Shown one piece after another: positions 1,514-62,053 of a stretch of DNA of 64,000 nt (position 1 is the stretch's first letter; every line of letters starts with the position of its first letter). A program made the position numbers and the translations under genes. Origin of the DNA: Roseivivax marinus (GTDB lineage Bacteria; Pseudomonadota; Alphaproteobacteria; Rhodobacterales; Rhodobacteraceae); the NCBI RefSeq assembly GCF_900109705.1, contig NZ_FOAI01000004.1:62001-126000 (forward strand), in the 5' to 3' direction. The notes under the pieces are model-generated. The model saw nothing but the letters and a program-made list of their open reading frames with translations. It made no database searches and had not been told where the DNA came from.

Positions 1514-1546
1514 GGGCGGGCTCTCCGGATGGCGGGGGGCGTCGGA

Positions 1547-3067: not shown

Positions 3068-3972
3068 TGTGATCTGTCCCTGTCGTTTTTCCGGTCGAGT
3101 AGGTCGGCGGCCACGCCGAGTGCAATGGCCTGCGGGTGCTTGCCGAGAGATTTGCGACCGATCGGACACTGAATGCGCGCGATCGCGGCATCCGCGTGGC
3201 CGAGCGCCCGGAGCCGCGACGCGAAGCGCGCCCGCTTCGTGTCCGACCCGATCAGCCCCGCGTGCCCGAACCCGTGGGCTAGCAGCGTATGGCAGAGCGA
3301 GAGGTCGATCTCGTGGCTGTAGGTCAGCACGAGGTGCCAGGCGTTCCTCGGCGCCAGCGCGACCGCGCGCGCCGGATCGGCAGCGGGCAGGCAGCGCACG
3401 CCGTCGGGGGCCGTGTCCGGGAAACGCTCGGGTGCGGTGTCGATCCAGGTCAGCGCGAAGTCGGGCAGGGGAGCCAGCGCGCCGGCAATGGCGCGTCCGA
3501 CGTGGCCCGCCCCCCAGAGCCAGAGCGGAACACTGTCGTGCGCCAAGGGCTCCACGAACCAGCCCTGCACGAGCTGCGGCGCCAGCGCGGCCCCGGTCGA
3601 CCGCGCCGCGTCCACGATCCGCGCGACCGCCAGCGGCATCTCTCCGGCCCCCCGCGCCACCACGGGCCCATCGAGCGCGACGAGGCGCGCGGCGTCCCAG
3701 CGCTCGGTCAGAAGCGTCACCGCCCCGCCGCAGCACTGGCCAAGCGAAGGCCCCAGCGGATGCCGGGTCAGCCCGTCGCGGTCGAAGGCGAGGCGCGCGG
3801 CCTCCAGTTCCAGCGCGCCGCCGCCGATGGTGCCGGACTGACCGCCCGGCCACACCAGCATCGACGCGCCGACCTCGCGCGGGGCCGAGCCCGCGACCTC
3901 GGCGACGACGACCCGGGCCACGTGGCCGTGGGCGGCCACCGCCGCGGCGATTTCCTCGCGGTCAAACGCCAT
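3043..3972 (-). CDS. xdhC: Xanthine dehydrogenase accessory protein XdhC
   Basis: 309 residues. The N-terminal XdhC/CoxI domain includes VAEVAGSAPREVGASMLV and the GTIGGGALE loop. A C-terminal Rossmann-like domain contains LWGAGHVGRAIAGAL. Known role: XdhC binds the molybdenum cofactor, promotes its sulfuration and inserts it into XdhB; it is not part of the final enzyme. It overlaps the end of xdhB by 11 bases and the start of the ABC ATPase by 25. The tail after about residue 285 lies in the ATPase overlap and looks unconserved. Confidence 0.92.
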   Translation of the reverse strand: MAFDREEIAAAVAAHGHVARVVVAEVAGSAPREVGASMLVWPGGQSGTIGGGALELEAARLAFDRDGLTRHPLGPSLGQCCGGAVTLLTERWDAARLVALDGPVVARGAGEMPLAVARIVDAARSTGAALAPQLVQGWFVEPLAHDSVPLWLWGAGHVGRAIAGALAPLPDFALTWIDTAPERFPDTAPDGVRCLPAADPARAVALAPRNAWHLVLTYSHEIDLSLCHTLLAHGFGHAGLIGSDTKRARFASRLRALGHADAAIARIQCPIGRKSLGKHPQAIALGVAADLLDRKNDRDRSQWPMRSSA

Positions 3973-6427
3973 CGCGCACCCGGCTCACCGCCTCCAGCAC
4001 GCGTTCGGGCGTCGCCGGCGCGTCGAGCGCCGGGTAACCCGGGCCGCAGGACGCCACCGCGTCCGACAGCGCGAGGAAGGCCGACATGCCCAGCATGAAG
4101 GGCGGCTCGCCAACCGCCTTCGAGCGATAGATCGTCTCTTCCCGGTTGGACCCCTCCCAGAGCGCGACGTTGAACACCCGTGGCCGGTCCGAACAGGCGG
4201 GGATCTTGTAGGTCGACGGCGCATGGGTCCGAAGGCGGCCGTCGCCGTCCCAGACCAGCTCCTCGGTCGTCAGCCAGCCCGCGCCCTGCACGAAACCGCC
4301 CTCGATCTGCCCGATGTCGATGGCCGGGTTCAGCGAGGCGCCCGCATCATGGAGGATGTCCGTGCGCAAGAGCTTGTACTCGCCGCTCAGCGTGTCGATC
4401 ACCACCTCGGTGCAGGCCGCGCCGTAGGCGAAGTAGTAGAACGGCCGGCCCTGGCCCCGGATGCGGTCCCACTGCAGCTTGGGCGTGCGGTAGTAGCCCG
4501 TGGCCGACAGCGACACGCGCCCCTCGTAGGCAAGTTTCGCCGCCGCGTCGAAGGCGTAGCTCTCGCCGCCCACGTGAACGCGCCCGCCCTCGAAGCGCAC
4601 CACCGACCGGTCGGTCTGGTGGCGCTCGGCGAGATGCGCGGCGATGCGGTCGCGGATGGTGTCGCAGGCGGCCTTCACCGCCATGCCGTTCAGGTCCGAG
4701 CCCGACGAGGCCGCGGTGGCCGAGGTGTTGGGCACCTTGCCGGTGTCGGTCGCGGTAATCTTCACCCGCTCCAGCCCCACGCCGAAGCGCGCCGCCGCCA
4801 CCTGCGCAACCTTCTGGAACAGGCCCTGTCCCATCTCGGTGCCGCCATGGTTCAGGTGGATCGAGCCGTCCTGGTAGACGTGCACCAGCGCGCCCGCCTG
4901 GTTGAGATGCGACAGCGTGAACGAGATGCCGAACTTCACCGGCGTCAGCGCGAGCCCTTTCCTGAGGATAGGGTTCGCCGCGTTCCACTCGGCGACGCGG
5001 GCGCGCCGCCCGGCATAGTCGCAGCTCTCCGCGAGGCGTTCGGTGATGCCGTGCAGGATGAAATCCTCCACCGCCATGCCGTAAGGGGTGGTTTGCACGC
5101 CCGCGGGCGCAGCGGGCGCGCCGCCCTCGGGCACCGAGCCCACCGCCCCGCGCGAGGCCACGTCCAGCGCGTCGTCTCCGGGCAGCCCGGCGGTGGCGTC
5201 CGCGCCGTCCCCCGGCTTCTTCTCGTCGGAAATACTCTCCGGGGGGGCGCCGGAGGCGCGGGGGGCGGACAGCCCCCCTCCGTCGGCCTCCGCGTAGTAG
5301 TTCCGCCGGCGCAGCTCGAGAGGATCGAGCCCGAGCACGTGGGCGGCGTGGTCCATCACCCGCTCGATCCCCAGCATCCCCTGCGGGCCGCCGAAACCGC
5401 GGAAGGCGGTGGCGCTCTGGGTGTTGGTCTTGAGCCGGTGGCTCTCGATCCGCGCGGCGGGCAGGTTGTAGGCGTTGTCGGCATGCAGCATCGCGCGGTC
5501 GGCCACCGGCAGCGAGAGGTCCTGCGCCCAGCCGCAGCGGATGTAATGCTCGAACTCCACCCCGAGCATGCGGCCCTCGTCATCGAAGCCCGCGCGATAC
5601 TCGATGCGCGCATCGTGGCGCTTGCCGGTGATGACGAAATCGTCGTCGCGGTCGTACCGCATCCGGCAGGGGCGTCCCGTGATCCGCGCGGCCACGGCGC
5701 AGGCGACCGCCAGCGCGTTTCCCTGGCTTTCCTTGCCGCCGAAGCCGCCGCCCATCCGCCGGGTCTCGACCCGGACGCCGTGCATCGGGATGCCCAGGGC
5801 CTCGGCCACCTTGTGCTGGATCTCGGTCGGATGCTGGGTGGAGGCGTGGACGATCATGTCCCCGCCTTCCTGCGGCAGCGCGAGCGAGGCCTGACCCTCG
5901 AGGTAGAAATGCTCCTGCCCGCCCATGGTGATCTGGCCCGACACCACGTGCGGCGCGCCGTCGATGGCCTCTCCGGCGTCGCCCTTCTCCCAGATGCGGG
6001 GGCCTTCTTCGAAGCGCGATTCGGCGTCCAGCGCATCGTCCACGTCGAAAATGGCATCGCGCGAGCGGGTCTCGAACCCGGCGAGCCGCGCGGCTTTGCG
6101 CGCGGCGAGGTGCGAGGTCGCGACCACGAGGAACACCGGCTGGCCGAGGTAATGCACGGTGCCGCCCGACAGCAGCGGCTCGTCGTGGACCGAGGGGGAG
6201 ACGTCGTTGGCGTGTGGCAGGTCGGCGGCCTCCAGCACCGCAATCACGCCGGGCGCGGCGCGCACGGGCGCGAGGTCGAGCGAGGCGATGCGCCCCGCCG
6301 CGATGGGCGACAGGCCGAAGGCGAGGTGCAGGCAGTCGCGCGGCGCCGGGATGTCGTCGACATAGCGCGCGGCGCCGGTGACGTGCAGGCGCGCGGCGTC
6401 GTGGGGCAGGGGCTTGGCGATGCTCAT
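3962..6427 (-). CDS. xdhB: Xanthine dehydrogenase molybdopterin-binding subunit, with in-frame insert
   Basis: 821 residues from the ATG at 6427, which overlaps xdhA by four bases (ATGA); translation upstream of it is a shadow of xdhA. This Mo-cofactor subunit oxidises hypoxanthine and xanthine to urate. Visible motifs are MGGGFGGKE, RGFGGPQGM and the C-terminal catalytic region KAVGEPPFMLG. Oddity: between NYYAEADGG and QTTPYGMAVEDF, contiguous in the homologues I know, lie about 64 extra residues (about 383-446) rich in Gly, Ala, Pro and Asp. Their DNA (about 5093-5285) holds a copy of a repeat also found between genes. The frame stays open, so the enzyme may tolerate the insert as a surface loop. 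Confidence 0.92.
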   Translation of the reverse strand: MSIAKPLPHDAARLHVTGAARYVDDIPAPRDCLHLAFGLSPIAAGRIASLDLAPVRAAPGVIAVLEAADLPHANDVSPSVHDEPLLSGGTVHYLGQPVFLVVATSHLAARKAARLAGFETRSRDAIFDVDDALDAESRFEEGPRIWEKGDAGEAIDGAPHVVSGQITMGGQEHFYLEGQASLALPQEGGDMIVHASTQHPTEIQHKVAEALGIPMHGVRVETRRMGGGFGGKESQGNALAVACAVAARITGRPCRMRYDRDDDFVITGKRHDARIEYRAGFDDEGRMLGVEFEHYIRCGWAQDLSLPVADRAMLHADNAYNLPAARIESHRLKTNTQSATAFRGFGGPQGMLGIERVMDHAAHVLGLDPLELRRRNYYAEADGGGLSAPRASGAPPESISDEKKPGDGADATAGLPGDDALDVASRGAVGSVPEGGAPAAPAGVQTTPYGMAVEDFILHGITERLAESCDYAGRRARVAEWNAANPILRKGLALTPVKFGISFTLSHLNQAGALVHVYQDGSIHLNHGGTEMGQGLFQKVAQVAAARFGVGLERVKITATDTGKVPNTSATAASSGSDLNGMAVKAACDTIRDRIAAHLAERHQTDRSVVRFEGGRVHVGGESYAFDAAAKLAYEGRVSLSATGYYRTPKLQWDRIRGQGRPFYYFAYGAACTEVVIDTLSGEYKLLRTDILHDAGASLNPAIDIGQIEGGFVQGAGWLTTEELVWDGDGRLRTHAPSTYKIPACSDRPRVFNVALWEGSNREETIYRSKAVGEPPFMLGMSAFLALSDAVASCGPGYPALDAPATPERVLEAVSRVRDGV
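5216..5284 (-). repeat. Short GC-palindrome plus GAGTATTTTC-type element inside xdhB
   Basis: Read on the minus strand, a run of G/C blocks (GGGGGGCTG, then CGCCCCCCGCG, then GGCGCCCCCCCGG) leads into GAGAGTATTTCCGACGAG and AAGAAG. The same tail occurs between genes at 53615-53639 with one substitution and a two-base difference. From memory, similar hairpin-plus-GTATTTT elements are common between genes in Rhodobacteraceae. Here it is translated in frame as part of the XdhB insert (LSAPRASG, then ISDEKK). Confidence 0.7.
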
Positions 6428-7788
6428 GGTGCCACCTCCAGAACGTCGACCGCCGCGCCCAGATCCTCGAGCAGGTAGCGCGACAGCAGGTTGCGGGCGG
6501 CGTTCAGCCGGTAGCCGGCCGAGGCGCGCATGTCCGATAGCGGCTGGAAGTCCCTCTCCCAGGCCTCCCACGCAGCGGCGATAGCCTCTTCGCCCCAGCG
6601 CACGCCCAGAAGCGCCTCTTCCACGTGGCGCGCGCGTTTGGGGATCGCGGCCATGCCGCCGAAGGCGATGCGCGCCCAGCCGACGCGGCCCTCGTCGTCC
6701 ACGCCGATGTCGAAGGCGCCGCAGACAGCCGAGATGTCCTGATCGAAACGCTTGGACAGCTTCCAGACCTTCAGGCGCGGCGCGCGGGCGGGCAGGCTGA
6801 TCGCCTCGACGACCTCGCCGGGGCGCAGGTCCTGCTTGCCGTAGTCGATGAAGAAGTCCTCGATGGGCATCTCGCGGCGTCCGTCGCGGTGCGCCAGGTG
6901 CAGGATCGCGCCGAGTGCGATGAGCGCGGGCGGGTTGTCCCCGATGGGCGAGCCGTTGGCGATGTTGCCGCCGATGGTCGCCGCCGCACGCACCTGCGCC
7001 GAGCCGTAGCGGCGGATCATCTCGGCGTAGTCCGGGTGGTGCTCGACCATCAGGCGATGCACGCGGTCCATCGTGACGCCCGCGCCGATGCGAAGCCGCT
7101 CGCCGTCGTCCTCGATCCGCTGAAGATCGGCGCAGCGGTTGAGGAAGATCACGTCGTCGAGGTCACGCAGGTCCTTGGTCACCCAGAGGCCCACGTCGGT
7201 GGCTCCGGCGATCAGCGTCGCCTCGGGCCGGGCGGCGGTCTCTTCCAGCAGGGCCTCGAGCGTCGCGGGCGCGTAGCGCGCGGCCTCGACCGAGGGCAGC
7301 GCCGCGTCGCGCATCCAGGCAGGCACCGGCGCGTCGGCGGCGTCCTCGGCGGCGCGCACGATGGGCGCGTAGCCGGTGCAGCGGCAAAGGTTGCCCGCGA
7401 GCGCGTCGTCGTGGCCGCGGTCTCCGCGGGCATGGGCGGTGGCCATGGCGACCACGAAGCCCGGTGTGCAGAAGCCGCACTGGCTGCCGTGCCGATCGAT
7501 CATCGCCTGCTGCACCGGGTGCAGCGCACCATCCGGGCCCGAAATACCCTCGACCGTGCGCACCGCCTTGCCGTGCAACTGGGGCAGGAACAGGATGCAG
7601 GCGTTGAGGGCGCGGGGACCGTCCTCGTCGGTGACCATGACGGTACAGGCGCCGCAATCGCCCTCGTTGCAGCCCTCCTTGGTGCCGCACAGGCCGCGGT
7701 CCAGCCGCAGCCAGTCCAGCAGGGTCTGTGTCGCCGCGGCGTCGCGCAGCGTGATCCTCTCTCCGTTCAGAAGAAAGTCGATGTCCAT
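6424..7788 (-). CDS. xdhA: Xanthine dehydrogenase small subunit (2Fe-2S and FAD)
   Basis: 454 residues, the electron-transfer subunit. The N-terminal plant-type ferredoxin domain has a Cys cluster at about residues 34-48 (CGTKEGCNEGDCGACTV). The second [2Fe-2S] domain has CGFCTPGFV and NLCRCTGY at about residues 105-145. The FAD domain follows, with TIGGNIANGSPIGD as the FAD-binding loop at about 270-285. First gene of the xdhA-xdhB-xdhC-transporter operon; its stop overlaps the xdhB start by four bases. Electrons from purine oxidation at XdhB pass through this subunit to NAD. Confidence 0.95.
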   Translation of the reverse strand: MDIDFLLNGERITLRDAAATQTLLDWLRLDRGLCGTKEGCNEGDCGACTVMVTDEDGPRALNACILFLPQLHGKAVRTVEGISGPDGALHPVQQAMIDRHGSQCGFCTPGFVVAMATAHARGDRGHDDALAGNLCRCTGYAPIVRAAEDAADAPVPAWMRDAALPSVEAARYAPATLEALLEETAARPEATLIAGATDVGLWVTKDLRDLDDVIFLNRCADLQRIEDDGERLRIGAGVTMDRVHRLMVEHHPDYAEMIRRYGSAQVRAAATIGGNIANGSPIGDNPPALIALGAILHLAHRDGRREMPIEDFFIDYGKQDLRPGEVVEAISLPARAPRLKVWKLSKRFDQDISAVCGAFDIGVDDEGRVGWARIAFGGMAAIPKRARHVEEALLGVRWGEEAIAAAWEAWERDFQPLSDMRASAGYRLNAARNLLSRYLLEDLGAAVDVLEVAP

Positions 7789-53614: not shown

Positions 53615-53639
53615 CTTCTTCTCGTCGAAAATACTCCGG
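53615..53639 (-). repeat. GAGTATTTTC-type intergenic element
   Basis: On the minus strand it reads CCGGAGTATTTTCGACGAG then AAGAAG, and matches the tail of the repeat inside xdhB (5216-5242) except for one substitution and a two-base difference. It lies in the gap between tRNA-Gly copy 1 and the hypothetical gene ending at 53700. Confidence 0.65.
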
Positions 53640-61918: not shown

Positions 61919-61947
61919 TTGACGGCGCGACAATCTGGCACTACCGA
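61919..61947 (+). promoter_or_regulatory. Candidate promoter of the metZ leader
   Basis: TTGACG (61919-61924), a 17-base spacer and TACCGA (61942-61947). The -35 is strong and the -10 poor, but the implied start site would fall almost exactly at the 5' edge of the riboswitch. Confidence 0.45.
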
Positions 61948-61953
61948 CCGCCG

Positions 61954-62006
61954 CGTGGCGATTTGTTACCGGATTGCGGGCCACGTTAAACATGCCGCTA
62001 AAGAGG
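61954..62006 (+). ncRNA. SAM-II riboswitch (metA motif)
   Basis: P1 stem CGTGGC (61954-61959) with GCCACG (61980-61985), loop GATTTGTTACCGG, then TTAAACATGCCGCTAAAGAGG, which supplies the pseudoknot strand and the invariant GCTAAA-AGG tail. Spacing and conserved bases match SAM-II aptamers, which bind S-adenosylmethionine and repress methionine-synthesis genes in alphaproteobacteria. A terminator hairpin follows at 62018, then metZ. Confidence 0.93.
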
Positions 62007-62017
62007 TCATACGGAAG

Positions 62018-62053
62018 AGCCCCTTCTGCGTGACCGCGGAACGGGGCTTTTTT
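62018..62053 (+). terminator. Intrinsic terminator of the SAM-II leader
   Basis: AGCCCC / GGGGCT with extended inner pairing (TTC/GAA across a bulge), followed by six T. It starts 11 bases after the aptamer, so SAM binding probably favours termination before metZ. Confidence 0.85.

What the first reader, a model, noticed from the sequence alone, without database searches (positions are those of the whole stretch)
5093..5285. In-frame repeat-derived insert in the catalytic subunit of xanthine dehydrogenase
About 64 codons interrupt XdhB between NYYAEADGG and QTTPYGM, contiguous in the XdhB proteins I know. About 70 bases of the insert form a GC-palindrome plus GAGTATTTTC-like element whose tail recurs between genes at 53615-53639. 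The length keeps the frame. This resembles Rickettsia palindromic elements, which insert in genes and add a peptide. If right, a roseobacter intergenic repeat can move into coding DNA and survive.
Basis: partly seen in the sequence, partly recalled or inferred. Interest (0 to 1): 0.72.

Follow-up and report, generated by a model that had tools for sequence, protein, structure and literature searches.

The report
Genome-dialect repeat inside xanthine dehydrogenase gene
A short hairpin-plus-tail DNA repeat that marine roseobacters scatter between genes also sits, in frame, inside a xanthine dehydrogenase gene in many members of the family, and the copy inside the gene is usually spelled in the same private dialect as that genome's other copies.

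Summary
The insert is real, but the reading changes. The XdhB loop is 68 codons (5090-5293); only 63 bases (5216-5278) are repeat: two hairpins, GAGTATTT, three variable bases, ACGAGAAGAAG. The rest is an XdhB loop shared with relatives. Of 37 other copies found by their tail in this genome none is in a gene (one after correcting a gene call); one more, found by its hairpins, with a decayed tail, is in frame in cobN.

The xdhB copy is not unique: a recognisable one holds the same site, strand and frame in 28 of 79 named XdhB loops, spread over the Rhodobacteraceae. XdhA has another slot, antisense.

Each genome writes its copies in its own tail 'dialects', and xdhB follows: 11 of 15 genomes match exactly (1.7 expected; 0 of 100,000 permutations as good). 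One dialect has 47 copies in one genome, xdhB among them, and none in 36 others. Slots stay put while spelling changes; the spacer is not homogenised.

Best reading: an old repeat slot in a permissive linker, kept in concert with a genome-wide, probably protein-recognised DNA signal. Recognition is inferred, function unknown. Rickettsia-like in location only.

The parts
3962..6427 (-). xdhB, molybdopterin-binding subunit of xanthine dehydrogenase, 821 aa
   Evidence: TIGR02965; gene; Pfam MoCoBD_1 ends at residue 377 and MoCoBD_2 begins at 465, so the loop lies between the two domains
5090..5293 (-). whole variable loop of XdhB, 68 codons, between NYY and TPYGM
5216..5278 (-). repeat element inside the loop, 63 nt, encoding GGLSAPRASGAPPESISDEKK
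   Evidence: 38 genome hits of the 19-base piece with up to 3 mismatches, 0 reversed control; coordinates
5260..5278 (-). hairpin 1 GGGGGGCTGTCCGCCCCCC
   Evidence: sequence; a hairpin-1-like pattern in 21 of 79 named XdhB loops
5247..5259 (-). hairpin 2 GCGCCTCCGGCGC
   Evidence: 5-base-pair stem, shuffle p 0.024; in relatives the stem differs in letters and pairs better than shuffles in 10 of 18 tested segments, this one included
5230..5237 (-). left half of the tail, GAGTATTT
   Evidence: unchanged in 31 of the 37 other copies
5227..5229 (-). variable three-base spacer, CCG here
   Evidence: low information at these columns; 16 different spacers in 47 copies of one dialect of another genome
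5217..5226 (-). right half of the tail, dialect ACGAGAAGAA
   Evidence: same ten bases in 25 of the 37 other copies; CCGAGAAGAA in 9
5090..5209 (-). non-repeat part of the loop (DGADATAGLPGDDALDVASRGAVGSVPEGGAPAAPAGVQT)
   Evidence: similar pieces in relatives that lack the repeat
6424..7788 (-). xdhA, iron-sulfur and FAD subunit; in relatives its linker has a second in-frame slot, empty here
   Evidence: TIGR02963; Pfam Fer2_2 ends at 147 and FAD_binding_5 begins at 172; 12 of 98 extracted linkers hold the element, antisense, the window's does not
53615..53639 (-). intergenic copy of the tail in the same window
   Evidence: gene context (L014)
1514..1546 (.). intergenic slot between a transporter ATPase gene and a permease gene; no element here, filled in Roseivivax sediminis and other genera

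Best explanation
The insert is a resident copy of a family-wide Rhodobacteraceae repeat (one or two GC hairpins, then [A/G]TATTT, three variable bases and a ten-base right half) lying in the linker between the two molybdopterin-binding domains of XdhB. SHOWN: same site, strand and frame in many genera; further in-frame slots in xdhA (antisense) and cobN; each genome has one or a few right-half dialects; in-gene copies mostly use a local dialect; positions persist while the dialect changes; the spacer is not homogenised. INFERRED: the slot was filled early in the family because the linker tolerates extra residues, and it has decayed in many lineages. Concert among copies is kept not by copying whole elements but by a DNA-level process that acts on the two halves and ignores the spacer, most simply a protein that recognises the bipartite site and shifts specificity between lineages, with biased replacement (molecular drive) or selection bringing copies into line, as with dialects of DNA uptake sequences. 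The added peptide is probably tolerated rather than useful.
For: Repeat: (25 of 44 genomes have a match; up to 124 strict copies; reversed control 0 or 1 per strand). Same site and frame; tree (29 of 81 rows carry it, counting the window; fewest changes 19). Related peptide in PDB chain 1jro_B. XdhA slot. cobN slot: own genome and four relatives. Dialect match: (11 of 15 exact, permutation mean 1.7, 0 of 100,000 as good; one genome per genus 9 of 13). Specificity: 47 copies in G018, one of them xdhB, 0 in 36 others; 51 in G024 including xdhB, 66 in G017, 0 in 35 others. Named genomes: xdhB against xdhA n = 9, 5 exact, 2 of 20,000 permutations as good; xdhB against the intergenic slot n = 13, 5 exact, 1 of 20,000; xdhA against the slot n = 7, 3 exact, 21 of 20,000. 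cobN tails: local dialect in G006 and G008, one base off in G010. Slot kept with other dialects. Spacer differs between same-dialect copies. Linkers: Pfam bounds for XdhB and XdhA; another in-gene copy lies before the second ATPase domain of a two-ATPase transporter protein (L251). DNA level: 52 sense against 38 antisense in tandem gene pairs (p = 0.17); xdhA antisense but xdhB sense; orientation follows replication in G017 (59 of 66).
Against: Four of 15 genomes do not match exactly: G020 and G036 one base off, G027 four, G014 six. In named loci several pairs disagree, e.g. L075, L080, L090. The own cobN tail is decayed and fits no dialect. Local dialect lists were compiled by hand from searches of uneven depth; those of G018, G024 and G034 were completed with a wider pattern run on eight genomes only. 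No recognising protein was found, and only one transposase family was sought. Spacer letters are variable but not random: third base A or G in 96 of 98 copies of two dialects. Replication polarity is strong in one genome only: G011 24 of 37, own sample 6 of 13. Hairpin folding energy does not beat dinucleotide shuffles (median z -0.71, 2 of 26 below -2; loops without the element -0.30, 1 of 28). Whether the peptide is ordered or useful is untested.
Confidence: 0.6

Rival explanations
1. A small mobile element, moved by an enzyme encoded elsewhere, inserts repeatedly into the same permissive linkers; local dialect in xdhB simply means recent insertion from the local pool.
For: Repetitive, hairpin-bearing, intergenic; the G017 replication-strand bias is what insertion into single-stranded DNA would give; presence in XdhB is patchy on the tree (fewest changes 19).
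Against: It would need the same site, strand and frame every time. Copies of one dialect differ in spacer and often in hairpin. REP-associated transposase family PF01797 is in 2 of 37 genomes (G015, G023), which have 6 and 3 copies.
Confidence: 0.22
2. Gene conversion between copies homogenises them, including the one in xdhB.
For: xdhA and xdhB tails are identical, spacer included, in G010, and tails agree across slots within a locus.
Against: Conversion tracts would carry the three-base spacer along; in L069, L111, L113 and L115 the right half agrees between slots while the spacer differs.
Confidence: 0.13
3. An RNA signal in the xdhB message, for example a pause or processing hairpin between two protein domains.
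For: Hairpin 2 is palindromic with different letters in different genera (10 of 18 tested segments p < 0.05, combined p 1.3e-9, rows not independent), and it lies between domains.
Against: The xdhA copies are antisense; intergenic copies show no clear sense preference (52 to 38); folding energy is not unusual.
Confidence: 0.05

Closest known systems
Rickettsia palindromic elements (RPE)
   Same: A palindromic repeat present between genes and, in frame, inside conserved genes, with the product tolerated (passages of review PMC2229807).
   Different: RPEs are 105-146 bp with predicted long stem-loops and terminal inverted repeats, and were found in 19 reading frames (same passages); here 63 nt, hairpins plus a bipartite tail, few genes invaded, and genome dialects.
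DNA uptake sequence dialects of Neisseriaceae
   Same: Short repeats with lineage dialects, two dialects sometimes in one genome, inverted pairs between genes, placement in permissive regions (passages of PMC3630211).
   Different: Uptake function and receptor not tested here; up to 124 copies per genome by one pattern, nearly all outside genes; GC hairpins precede the tail.
REP elements with RAYT transposases
   Same: Extragenic palindromic repeats (general knowledge, and abstract of PMC3733652).
   Different: Transposase family PF01797 not found in 35 of 37 genomes, the copy-rich ones among them; the GTAG/CGTC survey PMC3733652 has no occurrence of Rhodobacter, Roseobacter, Ruegeria, Silicibacter or Paracoccus.
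KOPS-type polar chromosome motifs (recalled)
   Same: In G017, 59 of 66 copies agree in orientation with the GC-skew halves of the chromosome.
   Different: Not significant in G011 (24 of 37) and not seen in the own-genome sample (6 of 13).

Membership tests
Rickettsia palindromic elements | repeat inside conserved genes, in frame | tested here: met
   xdhB, xdhA and cobN slots
Rickettsia palindromic elements | 105-146 bp long stem-loop with terminal inverted repeats | tested here: not met
   63 nt, two short hairpins and a non-palindromic tail; size from PMC2229807 passages
Rickettsia palindromic elements | many genes invaded in a genome | tested here: not met
   own genome: xdhB and cobN only, 0 of 37 other tail-found copies in genes; relatives: 122 of 126 outside genes, 1 of the other 4 convincing. 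The searches would miss in-gene copies with decayed tails and hairpins
DNA uptake sequences | lineage-specific dialects shared by the copies of a genome | tested here: met
DNA uptake sequences | promotes uptake of DNA | not testable with these tools
   needs a transformation assay
DNA uptake sequences | frequent intragenic copies | tested here: not met
REP/RAYT | REP-associated tyrosine transposase in the genome | tested here: not met
   PF01797 in G015 and G023 only, of 37
REP/RAYT | GTAG or CGTC tag at the hairpin foot | not tested
   no formal scan made
known RNA families | match to an Rfam model | tested here: not met
   no family reached its gathering score at the element; three microRNA scores far below threshold in 5000-5400
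polar chromosome motif | orientation follows replication in carriers | tested here: inconclusive
   G017 59 of 66, G011 24 of 37, own sample 6 of 13

The most novel reading that the evidence does not exclude
Rhodobacteraceae possess an undescribed self-DNA signal: a hairpin-tagged bipartite motif recognised by a co-evolving protein, whose specificity shifts give each lineage its dialects and rewrite copies in place, even those translated inside xdhA, xdhB and cobN.
Probability: 0.3. Interest if true: 0.88.

Novelty: new variant of a known kind. Interest (0 to 1): 0.7.

Why it matters
Repeats inside genes are usually read as scars of past insertion. Here the in-gene copy keeps following its genome's dialect across genera, so a protein segment is being written by a genome-wide DNA process rather than by protein selection alone. 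It also exposes an abundant repeat family of an ecologically important group for which the literature searches made here found no description (listings and starts of abstracts seen). It offers a natural experiment on how dialects of short repeats spread: fixed slots, changing halves, variable spacer.

Tried and rejected
Insert unique to this genome: rejected. Whole 192-base interval as repeat: rejected; 63 nt. L018 as an in-gene copy: rejected, the predicted gene is a fused open frame whose coding signal starts only beyond the element. My own first conclusion that xdhB is the only in-gene copy here (note) was wrong: rechecking the BLAST-only places showed a copy in cobN that the tail search had missed. 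Three of four apparent in-gene copies in relatives (L211, L222, L265) lie at predicted gene starts and are probably start errors; L251 stands. L348 in G017, called in-gene, was not examined; of the other peptide hits only 14 loci were looked at, L381 and L394 had no Pfam match. REP transposase: not found in copy-rich genomes. Rfam: nothing. Strong-RNA-fold test: negative. Early regular expressions lost loops: one search found none (my error), one search left 23 of 80 unread, one search showed them, got 79 of 80.

Rows dropped before the dialect test: G015 and G035 (no readable core in xdhB), G003, G004 and G007 (0 or 1 genome copies), G029 (one copy), and genomes whose xdhB lacks an element. 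G000's list was seeded with its own xdhB sequence; a neutral pattern counted 39 copies there but did not list them. The ACGAGAAGAA dialect of G006 rests on one listed copy besides xdhB and the cobN copy. For the G011 polarity count I dropped, by eye, hits that did not look like the element, and xdhB; 37 of the 52 copies counted or found were placed. Some automatic tails (XdhA of L070 and L105; slot of L088 and L098) may be chance. The literature library lacks most subscription papers; Ogata 2002 was not held, so RPE facts come from passages of PMC2229807.

Full report
What is there. The window lies in a 4.0 Mb genome, nearest by XdhB to Roseivivax sediminis among the named genomes listed (84%), so probably a Roseivivax; this is an inference. 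xdhB is on the minus strand (3962-6427), after xdhA and before xdhC. Between NYY and TPYGM it has a 68-codon loop. On the coding strand the loop soon reaches a 63-nt element: GGGGGGCTGTCCGCCCCCC, GCGCCTCCGGCGC, a C-rich joint, GAGTATTT, CCG, ACGAGAAGAAG (5278 down to 5216). Then follow about 40 codons of another kind (DVASRGAVGSVPEGG and so on), with similar pieces in relatives that lack the element.

The element is a genome-wide repeat. A 19-base piece has 38 hits with up to three mismatches in the genome, none for the reversed pattern. Of the 37 copies outside xdhB, 31 have GAGTATTT unchanged; the right half is ACGAGAAGAA in 25 and CCGAGAAGAA in 9. They are preceded by hairpins of a few recurrent types. 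Gene calls put 36 of 37 outside genes; the other is a false fused frame. Of the 36, 13 lie between convergent genes, 21 between tandem genes and 2 between divergent genes. In relatives 122 of 126 copies are outside genes: 43 convergent, 69 tandem, 10 divergent. Base rates of these arrangements were not computed.

The tail search is not complete. The BLAST search also touched four places not in the list; three are outside genes and one is inside cobN, in frame, reading GRGLSAPRAGGAPPSDISIRKKP, with a decayed tail. A peptide search of 23 of the relatives' genomes (18 with a match at E up to 1) showed the same slot in cobN of G001, G006, G008 and G010, all five confirmed as CobN by PF02514, whose matched stretch begins near the element.

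It is family-wide and speaks dialects. A neutral pattern finds matches in 25 of 44 genomes; the seven included genomes of other families have none. Copies by this pattern reach 124 per genome. Within a genome the letters on both sides of the spacer are nearly fixed, but between genomes they differ: AAGAGATGAA in G013, CCAAGATGAA in G030, GCAAGATGAA and CAACGAAGAA in G018, CCAAGAAGAA and GCAAAATGAA in G024, GAAAGATGAA in G033, GACAGAAGAA among others in G010 (lists partly capped). The spacer is variable: 16 kinds in 47 copies of one dialect and 17 in 51 of another, though its third base is A or G in 96 of these 98.

The xdhB slot is old. Loops were read in 28 of 30 fetched relatives (L052 and L057 not read) and 79 of 80 named loci. 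A recognisable tail is in 28 of 79 named loops by the automatic pattern, all in the same phase as the window's, giving peptides such as PPEDISTKKN or ASGGDISGQKK. On a tree of 81 XdhB sequences with the loop removed, carriers are spread through the family; the fewest changes of state are 19 (FastTree, 23 of 78 inner branches weak). The seven rows on one side of the drawn root, among them Microvirga, Methylobacterium and Mesorhizobium, have none. Some rows scored as lacking it hold altered or decayed forms (L081, L106, L110, L127, L133, L135), so 19 may be too many. The Rhodobacter capsulatus XdhB of PDB entry 1JRO carries GGLSAPPSPPEPIATKK at this site; in the DNA of another strain the hairpin is clear and the core decayed (L127).

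A second slot is in xdhA, after the 2Fe-2S domain, on the opposite strand: 12 of 98 extracted linkers by one pattern, 15 of 79 by another. In the window's XdhA the Pfam domains leave residues 147-172 between them. A third slot, between genes, follows a transporter ATPase gene near xdhC. One search printed it for 65 sequences, the window included; one search found the ATPase motif in 65 of the 80 named loci and a tail in 24 of these. The window's own slot is empty, that of R. sediminis holds an inverted pair.

In-gene copies follow the local dialect. For 15 genomes with a readable xdhB tail and a known local list, 11 match exactly, against 1.7 on average when tails are dealt out among genomes (0 of 100,000 as good); with one genome per genus 9 of 13. 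Two dialects found late were then counted in 37 genomes: CAACGAAGAA 47 in G018 and 0 elsewhere; GCAAAATGAA 51 in G024, 66 in G017, 0 elsewhere. In G018 and G024 xdhB is one of the copies. In named loci the three slots agree within a locus more than between loci in all three comparisons. The cobN tails of G006 and G008 are also in a local dialect, that of G010 one base off; G001's local list was not seen; the own cobN tail is decayed. Different loci of one genome sharing a lineage-specific spelling is concerted evolution. Because copies that share a right half differ in spacer and hairpins, whole-copy conversion or fresh transposition does not explain it well.

Where it sits. Pfam places the loop between MoCoBD_1 (to residue 377) and MoCoBD_2 (from 465). 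A further in-gene copy, in G024, is near residue 265 of a transporter protein with two ATPase stretches, the better one 303-448 (the bounds of the other were not printed).

Hairpins. The second hairpin differs in letters among genera but pairs more than shuffled segments in 10 of 18 cases (combined p 1.3e-9; rows are related, so this is generous; 7 of 25 loops were too short to test). Folding energy against dinucleotide shuffles is not unusual.

DNA or RNA. Neither strand is clearly preferred relative to transcription (52 against 38 in tandem pairs, p 0.17). In G017 orientation follows the GC-skew halves (59 of 66; the boundaries were set from 20 sampled stretches), while in 20 copies examined the upstream neighbour was a gene end 10 times and a gene start 10 times. 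In G011 the trend is weak and in the own-genome sample absent. This favours a DNA-level role but does not settle it.

Comparison. By location the case resembles Rickettsia palindromic elements; by dialects, inverted pairs and permissive placement it resembles DNA uptake sequences (passages of PMC3630211). It is filed in neither: size, architecture and rarity in genes fail the first, and uptake is untested and intragenic copies are rare for the second. Searches of the held literature gave no description of this family (listings only). PMC3733652 and PMC2267715, searched for terms, do not mention Rhodobacter or Roseobacter.

Noticed in passing
G000:C20:11175-11237 (L004, L393), inside cobN: A second in-gene, in-frame copy in the window's own genome, with intact hairpins and a decayed tail; the same cobN slot is filled in G001, G006, G008 and G010.
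   Followed up: partly
G017 contig C3; L315-L354: ATATTTnnnGCAAAATGAA copies are oriented by replichore: 59 of 66 agree with the GC-skew halves of the chromosome; two of the seven exceptions lie near 0.83 Mb, where the sampled skew is locally reversed.
   Followed up: partly
xdhA linkers, e.g. L093 near 9075, L111 near 8994, L113, L127: A second in-frame slot of the repeat, antisense, in the linker after the 2Fe-2S domain of XdhA.
   Followed up: yes
L251 (G024), minus-strand gene 706-2313: An in-gene copy in the linker of a transporter protein with two ATPase domains.
   Followed up: partly
G024 lists; own genome L013; L069, L094, L102, L133 near 14.9 kb: Copies often form tail-to-tail inverted pairs, in G024 commonly 6-11 bases apart, sometimes of two different dialects.
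   Followed up: no
window 5090-5209 and relatives' XdhB loops: Two other recurring loop modules, xDxASRGA and GTGxRFGGxHSP, occur across genera with or without the repeat (SRG in 21 and HSP/FSP in 11 of 79 loops).
   Followed up: no
window 61945-62022, plus strand: Alpha-proteobacterial SAM riboswitch (RF00521, 61.5 bits).
   Followed up: no
G009, G012, G021, G022, G025, G032: These family members have no copy with either of two patterns, so the repeat is absent there or spelled beyond the patterns.
   Followed up: no
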